A stretch of DNA of 64,000 bases from Rhytidiadelphus loreus (Eukaryota > Streptophyta > Bryopsida > Hypnales > Hylocomiaceae). Positions 11,250-63,960 of the stretch are shown here, one piece after another (the first letter of the stretch is position 1; every line of letters starts with the position of its first letter). The notes under the pieces are model-generated. The model was not told where the DNA came from and did not search any database. It worked only from the letters and a program-made list of their open reading frames with translations. The DNA lies in assembly GCA_947034895.1 (NCBI GenBank), contig OX344764.1:73451348-73515347 (forward strand), written 5' to 3'. Both the position numbers and the translations under genes were made by a program.

Positions 11250-11297
11250 CTTCAGGTCCAACATCAAATCCCATTATCTATCATTATTGCATCATTC

Positions 11298-11700
11298 TTG
11301 ACCACAAGGTACCTGATTGTCAAAAGAAGAAATGAGATCTTCGACACATCAAACCACACTCATACAAAAAATTATACAACTAATGAACCCCATTTCTTTT
11401 TCAGTGCTACTAAAGCCTCATATGCAATATCGTCTTCTTGGTACCTTGACTTTAAGGCTAGTCAACACATGATTGCCTTTAGATCCTTGCTTTGTGATTA
11501 TAATGAGTTTGATACACCTTGTACAATCCTTTTGGGTGATAATAGTTCATATAGCGCACCTAGCTATGGTTCAGTTCTTCTTCGCCTTTCCACTAGCAAG
11601 AATCTCCTTATTGAAGATATTTTATTTGTACCAAGATTAGCTAAAAATCTAATCTCCATGGTTCAACTTACTTCAATATTGTTGTCATCTTCAACTCAAA
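11298..11700 (+). pseudogene. copia protease remnant with altered active site
   Basis: The piece SSWYLDFKASQHMI corresponds to the copia aspartic protease start, where the family normally reads WYLDSGAS. Here Ser-Gly is replaced by Phe-Lys, so the catalytic DSG triad is lost. Downstream VPRLAKNLISMVQL matches the usual end of the domain. The frame then runs into the nested MITE at 11701. Confidence 0.68.
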
Positions 11701-12256
11701 GGGTTCACTTAGAGTGTCCATTAGAAACCACGTGCAAACAAAACTTTGGACCCCCTATATACTTTTTAAATTTTAAATAAAGCAAAATTTTAAAAAATAT
11801 GAATAGATTTTCCTACTTTGAAAGTTTATGTTTTGAATTATTGATATTTTTATTTGTTAATAATAATTAGTTACAAATTTTTGAAGTAAAAAGATACACT
11901 GTAGAATTGAAAAATAACTTTCACACCTCTATATTATATAAAGAAAACTTTGTCTAAAAAATGAACAAAAAATTTCTAAAAATAACTCTGTATTGAAAGC
12001 TCATTTTGAGTTGAATATTGATTCAATGGTCATCTAAATGTGTTCTCTACAATTATTTGAGTTGAAAACATGCCATTTTAGTTCATTTTCAACCTCTTCT
12101 AGAAATCATTTCATATTTTATTTGAATTGGAAATTTCGGCAATAGAAAGCTATAGTCATTATTAAACAATGTTCAAAATTTTAGGTTGAAATTATAGTTT
12201 ATTAGAAACTACTTGTTTGCACGTGGTTTGTTATAGTAGAACTAAATGCACCTCCC
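11701..12256. mobile_element. 0.56-kb inverted-repeat MITE, copy 1 (in copia protease)
   Basis: This copy is about 90% or more identical by eye to 19220-19775. Its ends are inverted copies: GGGTTCACTTAG on the left and CTAAATGCACCTCCC on the right. Further in, both ends carry CACGTGCAAAC in opposite orientation. It interrupts the copia reading frame between protease and the pre-integrase segment, so it inserted after the copia element. No coding capacity. Confidence 0.75.
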
Positions 12257-19219: not shown

Positions 19220-19775
19220 GGGGGGTCATTTAGAGTGTCCATTAGAAACCACGTGCAAACAAAACTTTAGACCCCCTATATACTTTTTGAATTTTAAATA
19301 AAAATAAATAAATAAAATATGAATAGATTTTTCTACTTTGAAAGTTTATGTTTTGAATTATTGATATTTTTATTTGTTAATAATAATTAATTACAAATTT
19401 TTGAAGTAAAAAGATACATTTTAGAACTGAAAAATAACTTTCACACCCCTATATTATATAAGAAAAATTCGTCTAAAAAATGAACAAAAAATTCCTAAAA
19501 ATAACTCATTATTGAAAGCTCATTTTGAGTTAAATATTGACTCAATGGTCATCTAAATGTGTCCTCTATAATTATTTGAGTTGAAAAACATGCCATTTTA
19601 GTTCATTTTCAACCTCTTCTAGAAATCATTTCATAATTTATTTGAGTTGGAAATTTTGGCAATAGAAAGCTATAGTCATGATTAAACAATGTTCAAAATT
19701 TTAGGTTGAAATTATAGTTTATTAGAAACTACTTATTCGCACGTGATTTGTTATAGTAGAACTAAGTGGCCCCCC
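19220..19775. mobile_element. 0.56-kb inverted-repeat MITE, copy 2
   Basis: Homologous along its whole length to 11701-12256 and in the same orientation. Ends are GGGGGGTCATTTAG and, inverted, GGGGGGCCACTTAG. CACGTG lies about 25 bp inside the left end, and the right copy has mutated to CACGTGAT. This copy preserves longer G runs at the tips than copy 1, which helps define the true termini. Confidence 0.75.
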
Positions 19776-26122: not shown

Positions 26123-26345
26123 CGGGCCAGGTTCCCTGTGGAACTCGAACTCAGTTTGATTCGGGATTTTGCTTTTCGCCAAATGAAAAATTCCACAATA
26201 CCAACTCCATAAAGACTGATATGTACAAGACTCATGATTTGATGAGCATGTTCTGTAAACCTTGTGTCACACGGCCACAAAGTGATATAGGTCAAGTTTA
26301 ACTATCTCAGGTTCCACATGTATCGATCTGGAAAAGTGCCAATCT

Positions 26346-26640
26346 TTAGAAATTTGCCAAAGTGACGCCAACCTCCGAGATGCAATACTCCAGCAGCAAG
26401 ACACAAATGTCGCCTTTGAAATCCTTCGACAACCAATCACGCGGCCACCACACGTCCGGCTTGCCACGCTGCAGTACCCACGTATCCTTGAACCACAGGT
26501 ACTTCCGCCGTCCGCCGTTCTCTTCGAAGAAGATCACTTACAGCTTCGTACTAACCGAGGTTGCGTCCTGTGTAACCACGGGGTTCACGAGGTAGCCCAG
26601 CGGCTTGCCCTCAGATTGCGTCTTTGACGAACCTGCAGCA
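26346..26640 (-). pseudogene. SERAC1-like alpha/beta hydrolase, N-side exon (broken)
   Basis: The minus-strand frame contains SEGKPLGYLVNPVVTQDATS, a stop, then VIFFEENGGRRKYLWFKDTW and, further on, WWPRDWLSKDFKGDICVLLL. In SERAC1/PGAP1-like lipases a Trp-Pro-x-x-Trp-Leu motif followed by Asp-Phe precedes the first core strand, which fits WPRDWL...KDF here. The in-frame stop between KL and VIFF and the lack of adjoining exons make this a relic. The Ser-containing core and C-terminus appear separately (see 28268-28466 and 51003-51800). A remnant of the same motif (DIRVLLLEYCILEAG) is kept at 50335-50400 in the right unit. Confidence 0.55.
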
Positions 26641-26654
26641 GTACATTATGACAC

Positions 26655-27135
26655 TAAGAATCGGCAATCCTGGACACTGAAACAACACAAAAACAGATCA
26701 TTCTCCAAACGTGCCACTGACCTGCTGTCGACTGCTGCCGGATGAAGTTTTGGATGGCTTGGTTGCTCGGGTGCCGTCCGGAACAAATACATTACAAAAG
26801 TAAGTTGGATCAATGTCCGTAGCCAGTGGTGCAAAGGGAATCGACTCTAAAGCGACACTGATGCAACAACATTGGGATATTGTCTCGACGACTCGACCCC
26901 AGTTTGTTGAGATACCACCATTAGAAGAACTCCGTGACCATCCGGCACTCTAGACTCTTAGTTCCCTGTCATCACTATTGTTCAACCCACGTACGATGAG
27001 CTTCAGTTTTGCAAGACGGAAGATGCATGGAGTGAGGAAAAGTTCCTGGCTGTCATAGACCCTGAATCGTGAGTGTATAGGTTCACAACTCATGAACTGA
27101 AGAGGATCTGAATGAAACTCCGGGACCAAATCTGC
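26655..27135 (-). pseudogene. Third copy of the tandem-kinase 3' end region
   Basis: This segment is homologous to 28490-28740 and 52260-52690, the DNA that follows the kinase stop codons. Shared landmarks are CCAGTTTGTTGA, the run CACTCTAGACTCTTAGTTCC, and GGCTGTCATAGAC. No kinase exon accompanies it, so it is the tail of a lost or rearranged gene copy. Confidence 0.55.
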
Positions 27136-28267
27136 ATGAAGTTCAATGCATTGATTTCAGCACAATCCACACCAAAACTGGCATTTGCTAGTACAAAGGA
27201 AATTTGTTGCATATTCAACCCTATGATTTTGCAGTATACCAGTATGAGAATGAGTGGATGAAATTTCAGAAACTTTTACCATACAGATTGAGTGATTCAT
27301 AGAAACTCAAAAGAAATGCTTGATTTGCTAATTATCATATTAGGTCATCAAACTAAATAAATTTGCATTATAGATTTTGAATTTGAAAATATTGTTGTTA
27401 AGAAATTGAGTTCAGGAAATTGTTAGGAAAAATATTTCAATAAAAAAAATATTGTCTAATTTCCAATCTCGACAAAAATGGCAAATAGAAGTCCCGGATA
27501 GAAGCAGCTACAAGACGGAAGGGAAAACAAAATTGATTATAGATTTATAAATCTAACCCCTAAAAACTTGTCAAATTGGGAAATTGGGAAATTGTAAGCC
27601 TTGAATTCAAGAACAAGTACTATATAACAAATTCAAGGAGATGGACCTAATGCCCTTCATAATTTTCACAGCAATAATCCAAATGGAATTAATTTAAGTC
27701 TTCAATGTAGATGTACAAATAGTGTATGAAGAACAAATAATTTTCATGTTACTTTTTGTTCTTCTTAGTTGCCCAGTTAGTGCTTAGGGCAACATGACTA
27801 TTGCCCATGGGCAATGATTAAAATAAAAATTGTAATCCTAGAAAGCTATTTTATTCCCTTATCTTCAAAAAGTTTTAAGAAAAAGCTTTGGTCAAAAAGG
27901 CTATAAGAAAGACAATGATGTTCTTTCAACTTCTGAGTTCCATTCCCTCAAAACATCTCCATTAAAACCAAAATCCTACACAATTTATCGATCAAGTAGG
28001 CAAAATGCTTGATGTATTTCCATACTTATTCAAATATTCTCAATGAACTCCAAAACCCTAAACCCCAAAGTATGCATTGATCACGCACTCGAAATGCTTG
28101 CTGTTTCGTAAAGATTAGCGGCGTCTCGTGACTGAGTTTAGGCCCCTAGCTATGCTGGGGATATTGACAGCCTCTAAAAAGTGAATATTCATTGAAAATC
28201 CAAGACCTTCAAACATATCAAGATTTGAGGACAATTTTCACTGCCCACTGTAGTTGAGGAAAATACC
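27136..28267. other. Duplicated gene-free spacer
   Basis: From about 27650 this matches 50400-51000 (shared TTTTTGTTCTTCTTAGTTGC and GGCAACATGACTATTGCCC). No reading frame is supported. Confidence 0.45.
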
Positions 28268-28466
28268 TCTCTCATTCAAGATCTCCACAAGAAACTCGAA
28301 AAGGTGTTTGTAAGAAGGGTGCTCCTTGTTGGTTGGTTTGTACGTATGGAATCCACGAGCTCCACCACGCTGCCTCTACTTTCTTTGAACTCCTGCATCG
28401 ACGCTGGAGGCAGAACGGTTCTCTGCAAATGGCAATCGCTTCAGAAAACAAACAAACAAATTCAAA
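28268..28466 (-). pseudogene. SERAC1-like hydrolase C-terminal fragment, left unit
   Basis: Minus-strand translation gives LPPASMQEFKESRGSVVELV and then a Thr-Asn-Gln-Pro stretch in place of the conserved CKPASK. It is the counterpart of the better-kept fragment at 51003-51215. In SERAC1-like hydrolases a His shortly before this CKP-type motif completes the active site. Only the C-terminal exon remains here, directly downstream of the left kinase gene. Confidence 0.5.
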
Positions 28467-28591: not shown

Positions 28592-31276
28592 TTAGTAACT
28601 TAGTTCCCTGTAGTCACTATTGTTTAACCCACGACGAGCGTCGTTCTGGCTGTCATAGACTCTGAACCCTCGTATGCATAAAATTCTTTGACGAATAGAT
28701 GGAAGTGAATGGAACTCCGGGGTCAAATCTGTGATGTTCTCTGGTAACTTAATGGTTAAATGAAAGAACATTGAGAACACACAGAAAATGGGATATTGTT
28801 TCAGCCTTCTAGTTGAACCGACATAATGGTTTCGAAATGTCGCTCCGACAGGGGATTGTGCGCTAGCGAGAGAAGAATCTCCACGCAGATGCAAGATGAA
28901 TGACATACTTCTGGTGGAGAGCGAAGTGATCCGCCGGAAAAGCAACCCAAAAGAGTTCGGTTTCGGATCCTTGTCAGGAACAGGCATTTCATGCAAGTTT
29001 TTCACAACGCCGTCTCTCGTAGTAAAAGCGAAAAGGTCGTGGTCCTCGCGAATGATACCGAGGCTCCGGACCTGCGCAAACCGAAGAAGTTTCCACAAAT
29101 CGGTGAAGTTGGGCCTGTCCTGCGGACGGAGCTGCCAGCAATTCACGATGCAGAACTTCAAGTAGTCAGGACAATTCGCTGGGAGCTGCGGCCGCAGGCC
29201 TTCCTGAATCTTGGTGTGCAACTCACCCTCGTCGTGTGTCTGTTCTACCAGGAACGGAGGCTGTCCACTGAGCACCTCGCTGAACATGATCCCGAAGCTC
29301 CACACATCCACAAGGCGGGGAAACTTCCGCGATTCCTTGAGAAACGGGGAATCTTTGATGAATACCTCCGGCGCTCCATACATCCTCGTTCCCACATTTT
29401 TCGACATCATGCTGGATGCGATGCTCATGGCCCTGGTGTTCACCAAGCCGAAGTCACCGAGCTTCACACGCAGGTAGCCAAGCGCGGCGAGCTCGGAGAA
29501 CTCCTTGGAACTCACGGGTTGCACCAGCACGTTGCTGGGCTTCAAATCTCGGTGCGCGACGTTATAGTTGTTCAAATGCCACATCGCCTTGGTCACTTGA
29601 AGCATCACGTCGATTGCGACGTCCTGCGGCATGGCGTTGGTCGAGGGATGGCGAATGTGCTTCGCCAAGTCGGTCGGCAGAAACTCCATCAGAATGTTCG
29701 ACTGCGACTGATTGGCGATAGCGCTAGGCTCCGGGAGTGCGTCGAAAGTGTCGCGAGGCGACGCGGAACTCCTAAAGCACACAACCTGGGACCAGCTGTA
29801 GGGCGTAGATCTGCCCGACTTGGACGGGACCGGCGCTTCCCAGTAGCGGAAGAACTGCACGATGTGCGGATGCTGGAAAGAACTCAAGATCGTGGCTTCC
29901 TTCAAGCATTTGAAGTTGAGAACTTTCAATGCGCAGTTGCGTCCCAACCATTGCACATTTAGCACCGCGCCATATACCCCACTGCCGATTAAACCCGCGA
30001 GTTTGTGCGCATTGAGGTCCACATTCGCCATGGAATGGACCAGGTCGGTATTCTCCAGCCGCGTCCGCACTTGGGTCGCGAGCAGATAGTCGAGGTCGCG
30101 GGGTTTGCCAGGATATGAACTCAGAACCTCTCGCACATGCTGCAGCAGCTGCTGCTTGTCCTCGACGAACGCCTTATCGAGCTCATTGTCGGGCGACTGT
30201 AACTCGTGCAGCAGTTTCTGGAAATTCTTCTCCGCCCCTTCCAGAAACACCTGTTCGATTTCCCTCTCGAACGTCATCTGCGTGACGGACACGATGGTGA
30301 TGTCCACCATGGACGTCCACCAGCGAAGGTCGAGAAGGATGTGCACGATGTTCTCCTTGATTTGGGTGAGCGTCACGGCGGACTCCAGCCACGAGAGCTC
30401 CACCTCGCAGCAACAGCCGCGAACCAGCTTCTCCGCGCACTTCACCGTAAAATGCAGCTGCCGCAGAGCCTTCCGCCGGATGTCATCGCCGTTGGTAATG
30501 CCAACGAGAGATTCCGACTTCGCCTTCAGGAAATTCCCAGTGTCGCTCAACTTGGTCGAAAGGTACTGGCATTGACGCAGATGCAGTTGCACGCGGCGCC
30601 CGGATACCATCTCCCGGACAAGCTTGATAGACGACGACGCCTCCCTCCAGTAGTCCACGTCGAGGTAGTCCATCGCCAACCCATTTCGAGACACTATCGA
30701 AGGTGTCGGGCAGCACTTGTTGGCACCTGAGGAGGGTGGATTTACAGTGGCAGTAGCTGCAGGGTTGGATTCGGATTGCCCGCAACAAGGTGCAACTTGC
30801 AGTGGGGTAGAGCAATGGTGCAGAAGTAAGGACTGTTTCCCCTTGGCTTGCAATGATGTGACAGCGATTCTCGGTAATCCAGAGTTGAAAGGTACATCTG
30901 CAAAGAGCTGTCGAGGAATCGCTAGCGCCGGCACCCCCGCTTGCGCCTGCATGGCCTCTACACCCAACGGATGTGATGCAGTCACCGGAGGAGATGCACT
31001 CCACTCCACCGTCCCTCTATCGGTTGAACTTGACAGTAAAGGTGATGTACTAGACAGATTCAAAACGATTCCAATACTCTGAGGAGAATCTACACCAACA
31101 CCAACACCACTTGAAGAACCCCAAGGAGACACTTGCAACCCACCACAGGAGAGGCTTCCACTGATGCAACTCCGGTTATCCTTAGCAACACCCATTCCAA
31201 CTGCAATTTCTTCCTGAGAAGCAAGTCCTTGCAGAAGCTGCTGCTGGGTTCGAACGGACTGTTGTTCCTCCTCAAC
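28592..31276 (-). CDS. Tandem kinase protein, left gene, exon 2 (second helical + kinase module)
   Basis: Exon 2 starts at the acceptor CAG|GTTGAGG (31276) and encodes 894 residues. The first 27 codons (opening VEEEQQSVRTQQQLLQGLAS) precede a Met at 31195 but are conserved with the right gene, so that Met is internal. Counting from it: Ser/Pro-rich linker 1-174; helical domain about 175-385 with HLRQCQYLSTKL and EKLVRGCCCEV; kinase about 398-708. Kinase landmarks are loop GSGVYG (404-409), Lys424, alphaC Glu433, HRD 548-550, DFG 581-583 and APE 608-610, so it should be catalytically active. An insert of about 45 residues lies between strand 3 and the hinge. The C-terminus runs about 110 residues beyond the right gene's stop. 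The exon is clearly GC-richer than its surroundings. Splicing is inferred from sequence. Confidence 0.82.
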   Translation of the reverse strand, partial: VEEEQQSVRTQQQLLQGLASQEEIAVGMGVAKDNRSCISGSLSCGGLQVSPWGSSSGVGVGVDSPQSIGIVLNLSSTSPLLSSSTDRGTVEWSASPPVTASHPLGVEAMQAQAGVPALAIPRQLFADVPFNSGLPRIAVTSLQAKGKQSLLLHHCSTPLQVAPCCGQSESNPAATATVNPPSSGANKCCPTPSIVSRNGLAMDYLDVDYWREASSSIKLVREMVSGRRVQLHLRQCQYLSTKLSDTGNFLKAKSESLVGITNGDDIRRKALRQLHFTVKCAEKLVRGCCCEVELSWLESAVTLTQIKENIVHILLDLRWWTSMVDITIVSVTQMTFEREIEQVFLEGAEKNFQKLLHELQSPDNELDKAFVEDKQQLLQHVREVLSSYPGKPRDLDYLLATQVRTRLENTDLVHSMANVDLNAHKLAGLIGSGVYGAVLNVQWLGRNCALKVLNFKCLKEATILSSFQHPHIVQFFRYWEAPVPSKSGRSTPYSWSQVVCFRSSASPRDTFDALPEPSAIANQSQSNILMEFLPTDLAKHIRHPSTNAMPQDVAIDVMLQVTKAMWHLNNYNVAHRDLKPSNVLVQPVSSKEFSELAALGYLRVKLGDFGLVNTRAMSIASSMMSKNVGTRMYGAPEVFIKDSPFLKESRKFPRLVDVWSFGIMFSEVLSGQPPFLVEQTHDEGELHTKIQEGLRPQLPANCPDYLKFCIVNCWQLRPQDRPNFTDLWKLLRFAQVRSLGIIREDHDLFAFTTRDGVVKNLHEMPVPDKDPKPNSFGLLFRRITSLSTRSMSFILHLRGDSSLASAQSPVGATFRNHYVGSTRRLKQYPIFCVFSMFFHLTIKLPENITDLTPEFHSLPSIRQRILCIRGFRVYDSQNDARRGLNNSDYRELSY

Positions 31277-31455
31277 CTGCTCGACTCACAACAACCTCCG
31301 CTCGTCAAAGCTCAAATCAAATATCTAAACTCACATGCAAGAAAACTCCCGACGCACCCATCGTATAGCAAATTAAACTAGAGACAGTTGTGAAAATGAC
31401 CCCATTTGACCAGACAAAATAAGAGGCATTTTTCTTCACAAAGAGTGGGACTCAC
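31277..31455 (-). other. Phase-0 intron joining the two kinase modules, left gene
   Basis: Donor GAG|GTGAGT at 31456/31455 and acceptor GAGCAG|GTTGAG at 31277/31276; length 179 bp. Both sides are phase 0, so removal fuses the two open frames. The right gene has a matching 179-bp intron. Reading through instead gives short tails that differ between copies (25 versus 11 codons), as expected for intron sequence. Confidence 0.78.
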
Positions 31456-33105
31456 CTCATCCCCATCAAACGACTCCTCTTCAGTGATCAACTTCCTAGC
31501 TGTTTCAGGAGAGCGTCGAAGCTCAGACCGCTTCATCATCGTTTTCTTTATATACAAATCATTAGGATGCACTTCATCATATCGATCCTCGACTTTCAAT
31601 CCTAAACCCAAAGAATGTAATGAATGGTTCCTCAAAAGCCTGTGCCTGAGCTTCTCGAGTCTTGCACAAATCTCCAAAAAATTGGGTCTCAAATCCCTAT
31701 CCATAGCCCAACCCTCCTCGATTAGTGATGCCAACTCCTTTGGAGTGTCAACAGGCAGATTTGGCCTCTGTCCTGAGCGAACTGCTGCGCGTACATCATT
31801 CCTCTTCTTCATGTCTTGAAAAGGTTCCTCTCCTGAAAGAATTTCTGAGCACATCACTGAGAAGCTGTAGACGTCAGCCTTGAACCAATTTGCTTTGCCC
31901 TTCGAGAATGACTCCGGGGCCATGTGAGTCGTGGTACCAGTTTTTCCAGGATCTGATATTGTAATTGACTGGTCCTCGTTCAATTTGATTTTAGCAAGGC
32001 CAAAATCAACAACCTTCACCTCAAGAAAATGTTGATAATAACTACAAACCACGTTGGCAGCCTTGAGGTCCCGATGAGCAATTCCATTATCATGAAGGTA
32101 GCACATGCCATATCCAATTTGCAATATAATGTCAAGAGCTAAAATCAAAGAGAGCTTCCCTCCTCTTTCCTTTAGCCTCCTAATAAACAAACCAAGGCTA
32201 GTTTCCATTTGCTCCATTGCAATGAAAAGGCCTCTTGTATGAAAAGTATCATATTTGTCGCAGCAAAGAAACTTCACGATGTTGGGGTGATTGAGACTGG
32301 CTAAAATCTTGGATTCTGCTAGCCATTGATCCTCCCACGACCTATTCCCAAACTCCTTCTTTGCACAAGGTACATCAAGCCAAGCTGTCTTGATAACGTT
32401 CTTACCGAGACTTACTGACTTCTCACTCCACTCTCCAGCAAGGTCTTCCCCATCCAATGACAAATTGTACGACCTCACATCAAAATCCTCGTCGACAGGT
32501 TGTTTGAGAGCAAAATTCACTCTCCCCAACAAATACTTTCCAAGGTGTAGGGATCGGAGGTCACTGCTGGAGATATTTGCAGCAGTGATATTTGGTGATA
32601 TTTGCAGCAGGCCATCGAGTCTATCCCTTAAAGCAACGCCATCTTCACGAATCTCCTCTGCACTCAGGGGATCAAAGGTAGAAGAACTACGAAGATCCAA
32701 ATGGGATTTTCCCTTGTTGATGTCCCCCAAAAGTTCATAGATGGTGCTGTAACTGAGGCTTGCCTCCAGCAAAATCTCCCTAAATGCCTCCTCGTTTTGG
32801 ATTTGAAATGCGGATGCCCGGCACCAATCTACACTGCAACAGTTCTCCACAAGCTTCTTCGCCTTCTCAGACACTCGATAAAAGTTCTCCAAAGCCACAC
32901 AACCGTAGAAAGGGTTGATGTCTTCAGACAAAGATGCCCAGGATTCAATATTTTCAACGGTCTTCTTTAGCTTGGAAGAAATACTTAAACATTGATGTGG
33001 ATTCAAAGGTTCTTCAAGCCTTACCAATTCACATATTCTCTCTATGTTTGTCCTCGAGAGAAGCAGAAAATTTGTAGGTGAGGAAGATCCACTTGCACTC
33101 GCCAT
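31456..33105 (-). CDS. Tandem kinase protein, left gene, exon 1 (first helical + kinase module)
   Basis: The ATG at 33105 has a good plant context (AAAATGGCG). The frame is open further upstream (to 33240) but contains no other ATG, so this is the chosen start. It encodes residues 1-550 of a joined protein of about 1,444. Helical domain about 15-190 with HQCLSISSKL and KKLVENCCSVDW; kinase about 226-491. The ATP-loop region (LGKNVIKTAW) has only one Gly and lacks GxGxxG. Catalytic features are otherwise kept: Lys249 in CAKKEF, alphaC Glu264, HRD 344-346, DFG 367-369 and APE 396-398. The tail is charged and ends at the donor site. The predicted product is a soluble Ser/Thr kinase, with no signal peptide or membrane segment. 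Confidence 0.82.
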
Positions 33106-33888: not shown

Positions 33889-34115
33889 CCCCTAAAGTAC
33901 CAGATCCATTGGGACATGAGCTCAATTTAGACTTTCAAATTGTGTTCAAATATCAATCTTATATTTTTATTATGTCACATTATGGATTGTCTACCACTGA
34001 AAATTTTCAATTTGTTCCTTGAAAAATTGTCATTGTTATAAATTTTGTAGCAAAAAGTGAAAATAAATTAGCAAAAACATTCTATTCAAGTAGAATTTTT
34101 TCAGGACATATAAGG
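33889..34115. repeat. Repeat family C copy with piggyBac-like left end
   Basis: TTAA at 33885-33888 followed by CCCCTAAAGTACCAG. The body is shared with 57822-58075 (paralogous position) and with 42836-43090 and 63722-63960, which lack the terminal motif. All contain AGCAAAAAGTGAAAATAAATT or a close variant. No right end was found. Confidence 0.5.
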
Positions 34116-50334: not shown

Positions 50335-50400
50335 GCCAAACTGACGCCAGCCTCCAAAATGCAATACTCCAGCAGCAAGACGCGAATGTCGCCTTGAAAC
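50335..50400 (-). pseudogene. SERAC1-like hydrolase scrap, right unit
   Basis: Minus-strand DIRVLLLEYCILEAGVSLAK corresponds to the end of the exon at 26346-26640. The upstream part of that exon has been deleted here and the sequence jumps directly to the spacer homologous to 27655. Confidence 0.45.
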
Positions 50401-51002: not shown

Positions 51003-51800
51003 AGGACAATTTTCATTGCCCACCATGGTTGAGGAAAATACCTTCCTCTTATTCAAAATCTCCACAAGGAACTCAAAAAGGTTTCTGTATGCAGGGTACT
51101 CCTTGCTGGCAGGTTTGCACGTATCACCGTGATTAAAATCCATGAGCTCCACCACCCTGCCTCCACTTTCTTTGAACTCCTGCATCGACGCTGGAGGCAA
51201 AATGATTCTCTGCAAATGGCAATCGCTTCAGAAGACAGCCAAACAATTTCAATGCGAAAGAGGTTGTATCGAATTCAAGAGAAAAAGTGTCCACAGAGAA
51301 TTCTGAAAATTCATCAATGGATGACAGAAATTCAATCAGAGTTTGTCTGGATTTACTTACCCCTCGGGTATGAAAGCCCTCGATCAATGCTATCAACTTC
51401 ACGCGTTCACGTCTCTTGCATGAAGTGCTCGGAAAGCTCCTGCAGTTTCGAAGAATCTAAACACAGATCGTTGAAGAGATTAGGCGAGTAGCTCAAGCCC
51501 CCAAAGACGTATTCGAGAGTATCCTCACTAGGCGTCAGTCCGGTGTACGGAGGAGCGTAGAAGAAGCATCCGGCCAGGCTTGCGAGGAAAGTCTAGGTGA
51601 CCTTGGCGCGGTTGGCTTCGAAGTCGTCCATAAGCTTCCGATTGACTTCGCTATTTGGTTCAGGGCCACCGATCATCACGCATCCTAAGCTATGGCCGAC
51701 GAGGACAACAGGACGGTTCCAGCTATGCCCGCGGTTCCATCGATCACTGCATCAAGCAAGCAGGCAAGTATCATGTTAGAGACGATTGGAATCTCTTGCG
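51003..51800 (-). pseudogene. SERAC1-like alpha/beta hydrolase, core and C-terminus (broken)
   Basis: Reading the minus strand downward from 51800, NRPVVLVGHSLGCVMIGGP gives the nucleophile elbow GHSLG with its Ser. An in-frame stop follows within KVT-stop-TFLASL. Then come AGCFFYAPPYTGLTP (normally GxxFYGTPH), FNDLCLDSSKLQELSEHF and another stop. A donor-like GTAAGT (about 51360) precedes the last exon, which holds LPPASMQEFKESGGRVVELM, then HGDTCKPASKEYPAYRNLFE. His before CKP is the expected catalytic base position of this family. Two stops make it a pseudogene. It lies tail-to-head just beyond the right kinase gene, as in the left unit. Confidence 0.6.
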
Positions 51801-52818: not shown

Positions 52819-55173
52819 CTAGGCTGAAGAGAATTGCCGGAAAAGCAACCCAAAAGACCTGGGTTTCGGATCCTTGCCAGGAACAGGCACTTTATGCAAG
52901 CTTTTCACAACGCCGTCTCTCGTGGTGAAAGTAAAAAGGTCGTGGTCCTCGCGAATGATGCCGAGGCTCCGGACCTGCGCAAACCGCAGCAGCTTCCACA
53001 AATCGGCGAAGTTGGGCCTATCCTGAGGACGGAGCTGCCAACAATTCGTGATGCAGAACTTCAAGTAGTCAGGACATTTCGCTGGGAGCTGCGGCCGCAG
53101 GCCTTTCTGGATCTTGGTGTGCAACTCGCCCATGCCGCGAGTCTCTTCTACCAGGAACGGAGGCTGCCCACCGAGCACCTCGCTAAGCATGATCCCAAAG
53201 CTCCACACATCCACAAGGCGGGGAAACCTCGGCGACTCCTTGGGAATCACCGAGTCCTGAATGAAAACCTCCGGTGCTCCGTAAATCTTCGTCCCCACAT
53301 TTTTCGACACCATGTCGTACGTGATGTTCATCGCCCTAGTGTTCACCAAGCCGAAGCCACCGAGCTTCACACGTACGTAGCCGCGCGCGGCGAGCTCGGG
53401 AACCTCCTCGAGACTCACGGGTTGCACCAGCACGTTGCTGGGCTTCAAATTTTGGTGCGCGACGTTGTAGTTGTTCAAATGCCACATCGCCTTGGTCACT
53501 TGAAGCATCACGTCAATCGCGACGTCCTGCGGCATGGCTTTGAACGCGGGGTCGCGCATGTGCTTCGCCAGGTCGGTCGGCAGAAACTCCATCAGAATGT
53601 GCGATCGGGCGATAAAGCTGAGCTCCGGGGGTGCGTCGGAAGCGTCGCGAGGCGACGCGGAACTCCCCATCGCCGTGATGCTCCCAGGGCGCGTGCTGTA
53701 GGGCTTGGATTTGCCCGACTTGGACGAGACCGGCGCTTCCCAGTACCGGAAGAACTGCACGATGTGCGGATGCTGGAAAGAACTCAAGATCGTGGCTTCC
53801 TTAACGGAATTGTGGTTCAGAAATTTCAATGAGCACTTGCGCCCCAACCATGTCACATTCCACATGGCGCTAAAGCTGCCAGTGCCGATCAAACCCCCGA
53901 GTTTGTGCGCGTTGAGCTCCTCGTCCTCGAGATCCAGATCAGTATTCTCCACCCGCGTCCGCACATGGGTTGCGAGGAGATAGTTCGAGTCGCGGGGTTT
54001 GCCAGAATATGAACTCAGAACCTCCCGCACACGCCGGAGCAACTGCTGCTTGTCCTCGACGAACGCCTCATCGAGCTCATTGTCGGGCGACTTCAACTGG
54101 AGCAGCAGCTTCTGGAAATCCTTCTCCGCCACTTCCAGAAGTTCGAATTCCTCCCCGCTCGTCATCCGCGTGACGGACGCGATGGCGATGTCCACCATGG
54201 ACGTCCACCAGCGAAGGTCGAGAAGGATGTGCACTATGTCCTCCTTGATCGGGGTGAGCGTCACGGCGGACTCCAGCCACGAAGGCTCCACCTCGCAGCA
54301 ACAGCCGCGCACCAGCGTCTGTGCGCACTTCACCGTGAAATGCAGCTGCCGCAAAGCCTTCCGCCGGATGTCATCGCCGCTGGTAATGCCAACGAGAGAT
54401 TTCGACTTCGCCTTCAGGAGGTTCCCGGTGTCGCTCATCTGTGTCGAGAGGTACTGGCATTGACGCAGATGCAGTTGCACGCGGTGCCCGGATAGCCACT
54501 CCTGGACGAGCTTGATAGACGACGACGCTTCACTCCAGTAATCCACGTCGAGGTAGTCCATCGCCAACCCATTTCGAGACACTAGCGAAGGTCTCCGCAA
54601 GCGCTGGTTGGCACCTGAGGAGGATGGATGTGTTGCAGTAGCTGCAGGGTTGGATTCGGATTGCCCGTACGAAGGTGCAACTTGCAGTGGGGTAGAGTAA
54701 TGTTGCAGAAGTGAGGAGTGTTTCGCCTTGGCTTGCAACGATGTAGCAGCGATACTCGCTAATCCAGAGTTGAAAGGTACATCTGCAGAGAGCTGTCGAG
54801 GAATCGCTAGCGCCTGCCACCCCGCTTGCGCCTGCATGGCCTCTACACTCAATGGATGTGATGTAATCAACGGAGGAGATGCACTCAACCACGCCATCGT
54901 CACTCTATCGGTTGGACTTGACCATAAAGGTGATGTACTAGACAGACGCAACGCGATTCCAACATCCTGAGAAGAATCTACACCACTAACACCAACACCG
55001 ACACCACCGGCGGAGCCCCAAGTGGACACTTGCAACCCACCACAGGAGGATCTTCCATCGATGCCGCCTCGGCCATCCTCGGCAACACACATTCCAATAG
55101 CAATTTCTTCCTGAAAAGCAGGTCCTCGTAGAAGCTGCTGCTGGGCTTGAACGGACTGTTGTTGATCCTCAAC
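52819..55173 (-). CDS. Tandem kinase protein, right gene, exon 2 (second module, pseudokinase)
   Basis: Starts at the acceptor CGCAG|GTTGAGG (55173) with 27 conserved codons (VEDQQQSVQAQQQLL...) before the Met at 55092. Counted from that Met the piece is 757 residues. Ser/Pro-rich linker to about 178; helical domain about 179-385 (HLRQCQYLSTQM, CCCEVEPSW); kinase-like domain about 397-707. Changes from the left gene are severe: loop GTGSFS (third Gly lost), HRD to HQN (546-548; catalytic Asp to Asn), DFG to GFG (579-581; metal-binding Asp lost). Lys423 and APE 606-608 remain. The frame is otherwise intact, with no stops, so this looks like a maintained pseudokinase. It stops at FRQFSSA, 110 residues short of the left product. 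Confidence 0.82.
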   Translation of the reverse strand, partial: VEDQQQSVQAQQQLLRGPAFQEEIAIGMCVAEDGRGGIDGRSSCGGLQVSTWGSAGGVGVGVSGVDSSQDVGIALRLSSTSPLWSSPTDRVTMAWLSASPPLITSHPLSVEAMQAQAGWQALAIPRQLSADVPFNSGLASIAATSLQAKAKHSSLLQHYSTPLQVAPSYGQSESNPAATATHPSSSGANQRLRRPSLVSRNGLAMDYLDVDYWSEASSSIKLVQEWLSGHRVQLHLRQCQYLSTQMSDTGNLLKAKSKSLVGITSGDDIRRKALRQLHFTVKCAQTLVRGCCCEVEPSWLESAVTLTPIKEDIVHILLDLRWWTSMVDIAIASVTRMTSGEEFELLEVAEKDFQKLLLQLKSPDNELDEAFVEDKQQLLRRVREVLSSYSGKPRDSNYLLATHVRTRVENTDLDLEDEELNAHKLGGLIGTGSFSAMWNVTWLGRKCSLKFLNHNSVKEATILSSFQHPHIVQFFRYWEAPVSSKSGKSKPYSTRPGSITAMGSSASPRDASDAPPELSFIARSHILMEFLPTDLAKHMRDPAFKAMPQDVAIDVMLQVTKAMWHLNNYNVAHQNLKPSNVLVQPVSLEEVPELAARGYVRVKLGGFGLVNTRAMNITYDMVSKNVGTKIYGAPEVFIQDSVIPKESPRFPRLVDVWSFGIMLSEVLGGQPPFLVEETRGMGELHTKIQKGLRPQLPAKCPDYLKFCITNCWQLRPQDRPNFADLWKLLRFAQVRSLGIIREDHDLFTFTTRDGVVKSLHKVPVPGKDPKPRSFGLLFRQFSSA

Positions 55174-55352
55174 CTGCGCGGCTCACAACAACCTCCGCCG
55201 GTCAAAGCTCGGGTCAAATATCTAAACTGACATTCAAGAAAAAACCCAACACACCCATCGTATAGAAAACTAAACAATAGACAGCAGTGAAAATGACCCC
55301 ATTTGACCAAACGAAATCAAAGGCATTTTTCTTCACAAAAGAGAGGACTCAC
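55174..55352 (-). other. Phase-0 intron joining the two modules, right gene
   Basis: Donor AAG|GTGAGT at 55353/55352 and acceptor GCGCAG|GTTGAG at 55174/55173. Length 179 bp, identical to the left intron, with the same phase. Confidence 0.78.
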
Positions 55353-57002
55353 CTTCCCATCGAACCTCTCCTCTTCAGTGGTCAAGTTCACAGCTATTTG
55401 AGTAGAGCGATACAGTTGTCGAAGCTCAGACCGCTTCTTCATCGTTTTTTGTATATACAAATCATCAGGATACTCTTCACCATACTGATCCTCTCCTTTC
55501 AATCGTAAGCTCAAAGAAGGTAATGAATGGTTCCTCAAAAGCCTGTGCCGGAGCTTCTCGAGTCTTGCACAAATGTCCACAAAATTGGGTCTCAAATCCC
55601 TATCCGTAGACCAACCCTCCTTGATGAGTGATGCCAACTCCTTTGGAGTGTCAACAGGGAGACTGGGCCTCTGTCCTGAGCGAATTGCTGCACATACATC
55701 ACTCCTCTTCATGTCTTGAAATGGTTCCTCTCCTGAGAGAATCACTGAGCACATCACTGAGAAGCTGTAGACGTCAGCCTTGAACCAATTTGCTCTGCCA
55801 TTCGAGAATGCCTCCGGGGCCATGTAAGTTGTGGTACCAATTTTGGGGCGTGTTATTGTATTTGACTTGTCCTCATTCAATTTGATTTTAGCAAGGCCAA
55901 AATCAACAACCTTCACCTCAAGAAACTGTTCACTTATACTACAAACCACGTTGGGAGTCTTGAGGTCCCGATGAGCAATTCCATTATCGTGAAGGTAGCA
56001 CATGCCATACCCAATCTGCAATATAATGTCAAGAGCTAAAAACAAAGAAAGCTTCGCTCCTCTTCCCTTCAGCCTCCTAATAAAAGAACCAAGGCTAGTT
56101 TCCATTTGCTCCATTGCAATGAAATGGCCACTCGTATGAACAGTCTCGTATTTGTTGCAACAAAGAAACTTCACGATGTTGGGGTGATTGAGACTGGCTA
56201 AAATCTTGGCTTCTGCTAGCCATTCATCCTCCTGCAATCTATCCTCAAACTCCTTCTTTGCACAAGGTACACCACGCCAAGCTGTCTTGATAACGCTAGC
56301 CCCGAGACGTTCTGACTTCTCACTCCACTCTCCATCACGGTCTTCCCCATCCATTGACAAATTGGAAGACCTCGCATCAAAATCCTCGTCAATAGATTGT
56401 TTGAGAGCAAAATTCACTCTCCCCAACAAATACTTCCCAAGGTGTAGGGATCGGAGGTCACTGCTGGAGATATTTGCAGCATTGACAAGGCCCTCGAGTC
56501 TATCCCTTAAAGCAACGCGATCTTTATGAATCTCCTCTGCACTTGGTGGATCAAAGGTAAAAGAACTACGAAGATCCAAATAGGTATTTCTCTTGTTGAT
56601 GTCTCCCAAAAGTTCATAGATGGTGCTGTAACTGAGGCTTGTCTCCAGCAAAATCTCCCTAAATGCCTCCTCGTTTTGGATTTGAAATGCAGATGCTGGG
56701 CACCAATTTACACTACAACAGTTCTCCACAAGCTTCTTCGCCTTCTCAGACACTCGATAAAAGTTCTCCAAAGCCACACAACTGTAGAAAGGGTTGACAT
56801 CCTCAGACAAAGATGCCAAGGATCCAATATTTTCAACGGTCACTTTTAGCTTGGATGACATACTTAAACATTGATGTGGATTCAAAGGTTCTTCATGCCT
56901 TATCAATTCACATATTCTCTCTATGTTTGACCTCGAGAGAAGCAGAAAATTTGTAGGTGAAGAGGATGCACTTGCAACAAATGGACACCATGAACTCGCC
57001 AT
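55353..57002 (-). CDS. Tandem kinase protein, right gene, exon 1 (first helical + kinase module)
   Basis: Start ATG at 57002 in the same AAAATGGCG context as the left gene. It encodes residues 1-550 of about 1,334. A 7-residue insert (within SSWCPFVAS) near the N-terminus and small deletions distinguish it from the left copy. Helical domain about 20-190 (HQCLSMSSKL, ENCCSVNWC); kinase about 226-491 with Lys249, HRD 344-346, DFG 367-369 and APE 395-397. As in the left gene the ATP loop (LGASVIKTAW) lacks GxGxxG. This half should retain activity, giving an active-kinase plus pseudokinase arrangement. The frame continues upstream without an ATG. Confidence 0.82.
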
Positions 57003-63721: not shown

Positions 63722-63960
63722 CCTTGAACTATTGCAAAATGATCAAACATCATGTTTAAGCTAATTTATCCTTTCAAATTGTATTTAAAGTATTAATCTC
63801 ATATTTTTTGTATGTGATATTTTGGATTGTCTTTCACAATTAAAAAATTCAATTTCTTTTGTGAAAAATTGTCATTATTAGATTTATTATAGCAAAAAGT
63901 GAAAATAAATTAGTAAAAATAGCAAAAATAATTCAATTAATTTGAATTTTTTTGAGGGTT
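63722..63960. repeat. Repeat family C copy at window end
   Basis: Matches 42836-43090 (paralogous) and, more distantly, 33889 and 57822. The final 40 bases before the window end (containing GGGGAGGACACTCCCC) leave the repeat and are GC-richer. Confidence 0.5.

What the first reader, a model, noticed from the sequence alone, without database searches (positions are those of the whole stretch)
28592..33105. Two long open frames are two exons of one tandem kinase protein
Seen: both copies have a strong donor (GAG or AAG|GTGAGT) at the end of the first frame and a CAG|GTTGAGG acceptor before the second, with 179 bp between, and phase 0 on both sides. The 27 codons between acceptor and the first Met of the second frame are conserved as protein (VEEEQQSVRTQQQLL versus VEDQQQSVQAQQQLL). 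Established: plant tandem kinase proteins, such as the WTK proteins of cereals, are immune receptors. Inference: this locus encodes one, with an unusual repeated helical domain before each kinase. A gene caller that treats the frames separately would miss the architecture.
Basis: partly seen in the sequence, partly recalled or inferred. Interest (0 to 1): 0.87.

Follow-up and report, generated by a model that had tools for sequence, protein, structure and literature searches.

The report
Tandem MLKL-like kinase gene in moss
A moss-like genome carries two copies of a gene that appears to join two cell-death-type (MLKL-like) kinase modules into one protein, an arrangement that resembles plant tandem-kinase immune receptors but is built from different parts.

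Summary
The frames, splice-like sites, 179-bp gap and phase 0 are exactly as reported, in both copies. One argument fails: the 27 junction codons show dN/dS 1.23 and are hardly better conserved than the intron. Other evidence supports one gene: 13 of 13 indels between the copies inside the joined frame are multiples of 3 (flanks: 5 of 45), the 201-204-codon linker stays open, the exon-1 end recurs in five of 12 clade members, and 11 of 104 helical-domain proteins found here have two kinase domains in one chain. The "unusual helical domain" is not unknown: each helical-plus-kinase module matches Arabidopsis MLKL structures along its length, by profile and by predicted fold. The locus is therefore a tandem plant-MLKL-like protein (HeLo-brace-kinase, twice), probably from a moss. 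Copy 2's second kinase has lost the HRD and DFG aspartates, giving a kinase-pseudokinase layout. The two modules come from different subfamilies. Some module-2 relatives continue into an alpha/beta-hydrolase domain, and decayed pieces of it lie downstream of both copies, so the gene looks like a fusion that lost a third domain. An immune or cell-death role is inference. No transcript was available, so splicing is not shown.

The parts
31456..33105 (-). Copy 1 exon 1: HeLo four-helix bundle (about residues 10-130), brace, kinase 1 (31633-32436), tail up to the donor
   Evidence: model pLDDT 85.5; AtMLKL3 match over residues 11-521
31277..31455 (-). Copy 1 putative phase-0 intron, 179 bp, with a stop in the exon-1 frame
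30674..31276 (-). Copy 1 exon 2, first part: 201-codon linker, open frame, dN/dS about 1.3
28925..30673 (-). Copy 1 exon 2, module 2: HeLo-brace-kinase 2 (29054-30016), HRD and DFG intact
28592..28924 (-). Copy 1 C-terminal open stretch, not conserved as protein; a possible further donor AGAA|GTATGT (exon end 28909) lies in it
   Evidence: a similar 'RSK' read-through in 5 of 7 module-2 homologue ORFs
55353..57002 (-). Copy 2 exon 1: HeLo-brace-kinase 1 (55527-56324)
55174..55352 (-). Copy 2 putative phase-0 intron, 179 bp
54562..55173 (-). Copy 2 linker, 204 codons
52819..54561 (-). Copy 2 module 2: HeLo-brace-kinase 2 (52954-53916) with HQN for HRD and GFG for DFG, a predicted pseudokinase; stop codon at 52819-52821
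28244..28422 (-). Decayed C-terminal piece of the alpha/beta-hydrolase domain downstream of copy 1
   Evidence: tblastn with P0007, matches in two frames
26271..26776 (-). Decayed N-terminal piece of a hydrolase domain, in-frame stops
51027..51748 (-). Decayed hydrolase piece downstream of copy 2 with a GHSLG stretch, an in-frame stop and frame changes
50343..50399 (-). Short hydrolase piece, out of order, downstream of copy 2

Best explanation
Each copy is one two-exon gene whose spliced product is a tandem plant-MLKL-like protein: HeLo bundle-brace-kinase, a linker of about 200 residues, then a second HeLo bundle-brace-kinase. It arose by joining a gene of one moss HeLo-kinase subfamily to the 5' end of a HeLo-kinase-hydrolase gene of another subfamily through a phase-0 intron. 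The hydrolase part decayed and the unit was duplicated (copies about 24 kb apart). Most likely mechanism (inferred, about 45%): an autoinhibited oligomer in which the kinase/pseudokinase halves sense a pathogen effector or a phosphorylation signal and release the HeLo bundles to act on membranes and trigger cell death. In copy 2 the degenerate second kinase would be the sensor or bait. Two bundles per chain would lower the number of chains needed for assembly. Shown: frames, homology, predicted fold, motif losses. Inferred: splicing, order of events, oligomer, cell death, immunity.
Against: No transcript or junction read. Single-module relatives of module 2 start within a few residues of the Met in MDYLD, and that Met is kept here, so an internal start is possible. 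The linker shows no protein-level constraint, and no indel tests the 27 junction codons. The acceptor is weak by composition. P0133, an annotated Ceratodon gene model of the module-1 clade, ends a few residues after the shared exon end as a single-module protein. No homologue seen joins exactly these two subfamilies. The downstream hydrolase has decayed in both copies, so loss of function in progress is possible. No functional data.
Confidence: 0.66

Rival explanations
1. Two separate genes lie head to tail: module 1 ends in the 'intron', and module 2 starts at its own Met (MGV.. or MDYLD..).
For: Several module-2 relatives start within a few residues of the place of MDYLD. Several module-1 relatives are deposited as single-module proteins, among them the Ceratodon gene model P0133. 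The linker shows no protein-level constraint.
Against: Fewer than 300 bp between the modules' frames would have to hold a terminator and a promoter (inference). Linker indels are all multiples of 3 (3 of 3) and no stop arose in either copy (chance about 0.04-0.055 by simulation); this speaks against a start at MDYLD but not against a start at the first Met of exon 2. The exon-1 end recurs in homologues. Tandem homologues exist.
Confidence: 0.13
2. Exon 1 is a cassette that is spliced to several partners. The tandem form is only one product, or exon 1 truly continues elsewhere.
For: Ceratodon members of the module-1 clade (P0128, P0008) run on into an AP2-like domain (Pfam E 1e-5 for P0128, below the cut-off) and others of the wider family into C1, ARM, response-regulator or LOTUS domains.
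Against: tblastn with 18 family proteins, which include the AP2-like, C1, ARM and response-regulator fusions but no LOTUS one, found no convincing partner exon in the window other than the hydrolase pieces. The next open frame in phase is module 2.
Confidence: 0.1
3. Former tandem or triple-domain receptors that are now dying genes: the hydrolase is broken and copy 2's second kinase has lost catalytic residues.
For: Hydrolase pieces carry stops and frame changes. dN/dS between the modules is 1.27. Copy 2 has HQN/GFG.
Against: Both copies keep about 1,330 codons open with only in-frame indels, and the modules show dN/dS 0.52. The second-position module of P. patens P0005 has also lost these residues (HMN/GFS), which may point to a role rather than decay.
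Confidence: 0.11

Closest known systems
Plant MLKLs (AtMLKL2, PDB 6lba; AtMLKL3, PDB 6ka4)
   Same: HeLo bundle, brace and kinase-like domain in the same order. Best whole-module match by profile and fold.
   Different: Two modules in one chain. The catalytic Lys, HRD and DFG are kept in three of four kinase domains; kinase 1 has a glycine-rich loop shortened by about four residues.
Tandem kinase proteins (WTK1/Yr15, Rpg1, Sr62)
   Same: Two kinase domains in one chain (if spliced), kinase-pseudokinase in copy 2. Fusion of different kinase families is one of two origins named in PMC6170490 (passages read).
   Different: A HeLo bundle before each kinase, whereas the 92 TKPs of 2018 had no further conserved domain (PMC6170490). 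Closest to MLKLs, whereas 175 of their 184 kinase domains were RLK-associated. A moss-like source. No resistance shown.
Pm13 (MLKL_NTD-kinase, wheat relative)
   Same: HeLo-like bundle, three-helix brace and kinase, needed for mildew resistance (PMC10951266, passages read).
   Different: Single module. Its kinase is placed in the LRR_8B/DLSV subfamily.
Moss PK-NBS-LRR (PNL) receptors
   Same: N-terminal kinase followed by a conserved phase-0 intron at the domain border (PMC3352924, passages read).
   Different: No NB-ARC or LRR here. Common descent of the kinase exon was not tested.

Membership tests
Plant MLKL | N-terminal HeLo/MLKL_N (DUF1221) four-helix bundle | tested here: met
   Profile alignments to 6lba and 6ka4 include the bundle for both modules; fold match from residue 11 (module 1) and 6 (module 2). 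Against: the window proteins themselves show no DUF1221 or MLKL_N hit in Pfam at E up to 1, and a single-sequence PDB search with module 1 matched kinase domains only in the rows shown; family member P0010 does pass the MLKL_N cut-off.
Plant MLKL | Brace helices and C-terminal kinase or pseudokinase domain | tested here: met
Plant MLKL | Tetramer; cell death on expression | not testable with these tools
   needs biochemistry and expression
Tandem kinase proteins | Two kinase domains in one polypeptide | tested here: inconclusive
   Both domains present. One polypeptide is supported but not shown by a transcript.
Tandem kinase proteins | Kinase-pseudokinase pairing (common, not universal) | tested here: met
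   Copy 2 only: HQN and GFG in kinase 2; copy 1 keeps both aspartates
Tandem kinase proteins | No further conserved domain (the 92 proteins of PMC6170490) | tested here: not met
   HeLo bundles are present
Tandem kinase proteins | RLK-type kinase origin (175 of 184 domains in PMC6170490) | not tested
   No plant RLK kinase was put in the tree
Moss PK-NBS-LRR | NB-ARC and LRR after the kinase | tested here: not met
   No such Pfam hit in the four frames at E up to 1

The most novel reading that the evidence does not exclude
In mosses the HeLo-kinase module is a mobile immune cassette with a phase-0 intron border, joined in turn to hydrolase, AP2-like, C1, ARM, response-regulator, LOTUS or a second HeLo-kinase module. 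The tandem form is an NLR-free receptor that carries its own pseudokinase bait and two death bundles in one chain.
Probability: 0.3. Interest if true: 0.82.

Novelty: new variant of a known kind. Interest (0 to 1): 0.6.

Why it matters
It links two plant immune protein types that are usually treated apart, MLKL-type cell-death proteins and tandem kinases, and suggests that mosses build many proteins by joining one HeLo-kinase module to different partners. If tandem MLKLs act without NLRs, a moss model would allow a direct test of how kinase-based resistance proteins trigger death. It also warns that a caller splitting the frames would list two ordinary kinases.

Tried and rejected
The 27-codon conservation as evidence for coding was rejected. 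The donor 8-mer as evidence by itself was rejected. The helical domain as an unknown fold was rejected. A complete HeLo-kinase-HeLo-kinase-hydrolase gene in the window was rejected because the hydrolase pieces carry stops, frame changes and a scrambled order. Pfam on the window proteins gave kinases plus weak hits below the cut-offs, among them RPW8 at E 0.19 for exon 1, and the single-sequence PDB search with exon 1 ranked an EGFR chain first and the two AtMLKLs second and third, over the kinase only; the link to MLKL came through profiles, relatives and folds. Foldseek with module 2 showed only other kinases in the 50 rows printed; its MLKL matches appear in the VIA-align second look. Foldseek's AtMLKL3 match for module 1 has TM 0.62 and rmsd 15.0 A, so the relative placing of bundle and kinase differs or is badly predicted.

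Literature: searches for tandem kinase protein with Physcomitrium, plant MLKL with HeLo domain, tandem kinase proteins with plant kingdom, moss with tandem kinase or kinase fusion protein (75 papers, 12 listed), MLKL with Physcomitrium, AtMLKL with bryophyte or moss (3,841 papers, 10 listed) and tandem kinase with MLKL showed no paper on tandem HeLo-kinase proteins of mosses in the titles and abstract starts listed. A fuller recent survey of tandem kinases that I recall did not appear in those lists. MLKLs were already counted as NLR-associated proteins in a survey that included mosses (PMC11218826), and one P. patens protein was among the 89 tandem kinases of PMC6170490; whether it is P0005 was not checked. 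Long branches (P0005_B, P0006_B, P0196_A and P0196_B among others) make their exact places in the tree unsure.

Selection effects: the 104 helical-domain proteins come from three searches that list at most 120 hits, one of them with a tandem-length query, so 11 of 104 is not a frequency. Alignments A3 (43 rows) and A4 (29 rows) were my pick from the hits listed.
Full report
OBSERVATION. The minus strand holds two long frames per copy. The reading of donor, acceptor, 179-bp spacing and phase 0 is exact in both copies, and the joined frames give 1444 and 1334 residues. The two copies are 76% identical over the second frame and 80% over the first and lie about 23.9 kb apart. The 179-bp stretch is not a multiple of three and holds a stop in the exon-1 frame, and in both copies a stop codon ends 9 bases before the exon-2 border, so only splicing could join the frames.

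IS IT ONE GENE? Three other tests support one gene. First, indels between the copies: 13 of 13 within the joined coding frame are multiples of three (exon 1: 6, linker: 3, module 2: 4), against 5 of 45 in three flanking stretches (0 of 9, 2 of 13, 3 of 23), p = 3e-9; the linker alone gives 3 of 3, p = 0.003. After 78 random substitutions, the number seen, the linker would stay free of stops with probability 0.04-0.055. The linker shows no constraint on residues (dN/dS about 1.3), as expected of a disordered spacer. Second, homologues: of the 12 other members of the module-1 clade examined, five (P0125, P0127, P0130, P0133, P0134) end in an acidic stretch followed by E or Q, then Val, then unrelated sequence, which is what a shared donor (GAG or CAG|GT) gives when read through. 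Four of these are ORFs from collections without organism names; P0133 is a Ceratodon gene model that simply ends there, which can also be read as a single-module gene. P0129 keeps the stretch but runs on; P0008 and P0128 are gene models that run into an AP2-like domain; P0126, P0131, P0135 and P0136 could not be aligned there by eye. Third, of 104 proteins with the helical domain found here, 11 have two kinase domains by my profiles (two of them, P0196 and P0256, with a weak second one), and P0005 (Physcomitrium patens), P0006 (Ceratodon purpureus) and P0010 have two helical domains as well. These are database predictions, the sample is shaped by my queries, and none joins exactly the two subfamilies found here. 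A start at the first Met of exon 2 cannot be excluded by sequence, because no indel falls in the 27 codons.

ORIGIN. In the kinase tree (115 rows, quick method) module 1 falls with P0125-P0129 and P0008 (8 rows with the two window copies, SH-aLRT 99), and module 2 with the Ceratodon proteins P0006, P0007 and P0009 among others (14 rows, 99). They are thus two subfamilies, not an internal duplication. The part of the window with exon 2 is richer in G+C than that with exon 1. Several single-module relatives of module 2 start within a few residues of the place of MDYLD, and four (P0006, P0007, P0009, P0250) go on into an alpha/beta-hydrolase-like domain with a GHSLG motif; Pfam's hydrolase hits for P0007, P0009 and P0250 are below the cut-offs, and P0006 showed none at E up to 0.01. 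tblastn finds pieces of that domain downstream of both copies, with stops, frame changes and an order that no gene could use. Copy 2 has lost, and copy 1 keeps, a donor-like site (AGAA|GTATGT, exon end 28909) at the place where five of seven read-through relatives show 'RSK'. I infer fusion of a module-1 gene to a module-2-hydrolase gene, decay of the hydrolase, and duplication, in an order that is not fully resolved. The moss-like origin is inferred from the best named matches (Ceratodon, Physcomitrium).

CATALYSIS. Kinase 1 of both copies keeps the lysine, HRD and DFG but has a shortened glycine loop. Kinase 2 is intact in copy 1 and HQN/GFG in copy 2. In the 14-row module-2 clade, 2 of 3 second-position modules (win_c2_B and P0005_B; not win_c1_B) lack these aspartates, against 0 of 11 others, p = 0.03; the comparison was made after seeing the data and the numbers are small. 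Over all 115 modules, 11 lack the HRD aspartate, 5 the DFG aspartate and 2 the lysine. dN/dS over both modules is 0.52 (z = 5.6), so selection has acted on at least one copy since duplication.

MECHANISM. By established knowledge of MLKLs and of Pm13 (PMC10951266, passages read), HeLo bundles can cause cell death; that the kinase half controls them is recalled from animal MLKL. By the tandem-kinase model (PMC8956640, passages read), a pseudokinase may act as effector decoy. I combine the two as the most likely mechanism, at about 45%, entirely by inference for this protein.

NOVELTY. Tandem kinases, MLKLs (also counted in mosses) and bryophyte kinase- or hydrolase-NLRs are known (PMC6170490, PMC3352924, PMC11218826, passages read). 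A tandem of two HeLo-kinase modules was not described in the listings and passages I saw. One P. patens tandem kinase was counted in 2018. The wider observation, one HeLo-kinase module joined to AP2-like, C1, ARM, response-regulator, LOTUS, hydrolase-like or a second module, may matter more than this locus.

Noticed in passing
Related proteins P0006, P0007, P0009, P0250: HeLo-kinase joined to an alpha/beta-hydrolase-like domain with no NB-ARC hit; kinase and hydrolase are also N-terminal domains of bryophyte NLRs (PNL, HNL in PMC3352924), so similar parts recur in a different assembly.
   Followed up: partly
Related proteins P0128, P0013, P0138, P0142, P0189: HeLo-kinase modules run on into AP2-like, C1, ARM, response-regulator and LOTUS domains, resembling integrated domains of immune receptors.
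   Followed up: partly
Related proteins P0168, P0185, P0187, P0190, P0192: A second tandem type, one helical domain then two kinases, with HGE in place of HRD in the first kinase: pseudokinase-kinase order.
   Followed up: no
31633-32436 and 55527-56324: Kinase 1 has a glycine-rich loop about four residues short while keeping Lys, HRD and DFG; by eye, close relatives such as P0126 share this.
   Followed up: no
11250-12255 and 19284-19775: Direct repeats 7,520 bp apart (89-94% identical) beside a frame with a Pol_BBD domain, E 7e-17: likely retroelement remains.
   Followed up: partly
28904-29962 and 52828-53832, plus strand: Long open frames (352 and 334 aa) antisense to module 2 in both copies; probably a by-product of G+C-rich codons.
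   Followed up: no
33919-34077 and 63759-63919: A piece of the region upstream of copy 1 recurs near the window's end (81% over 162 bp), which may hint at a further copy beyond the window.
   Followed up: no
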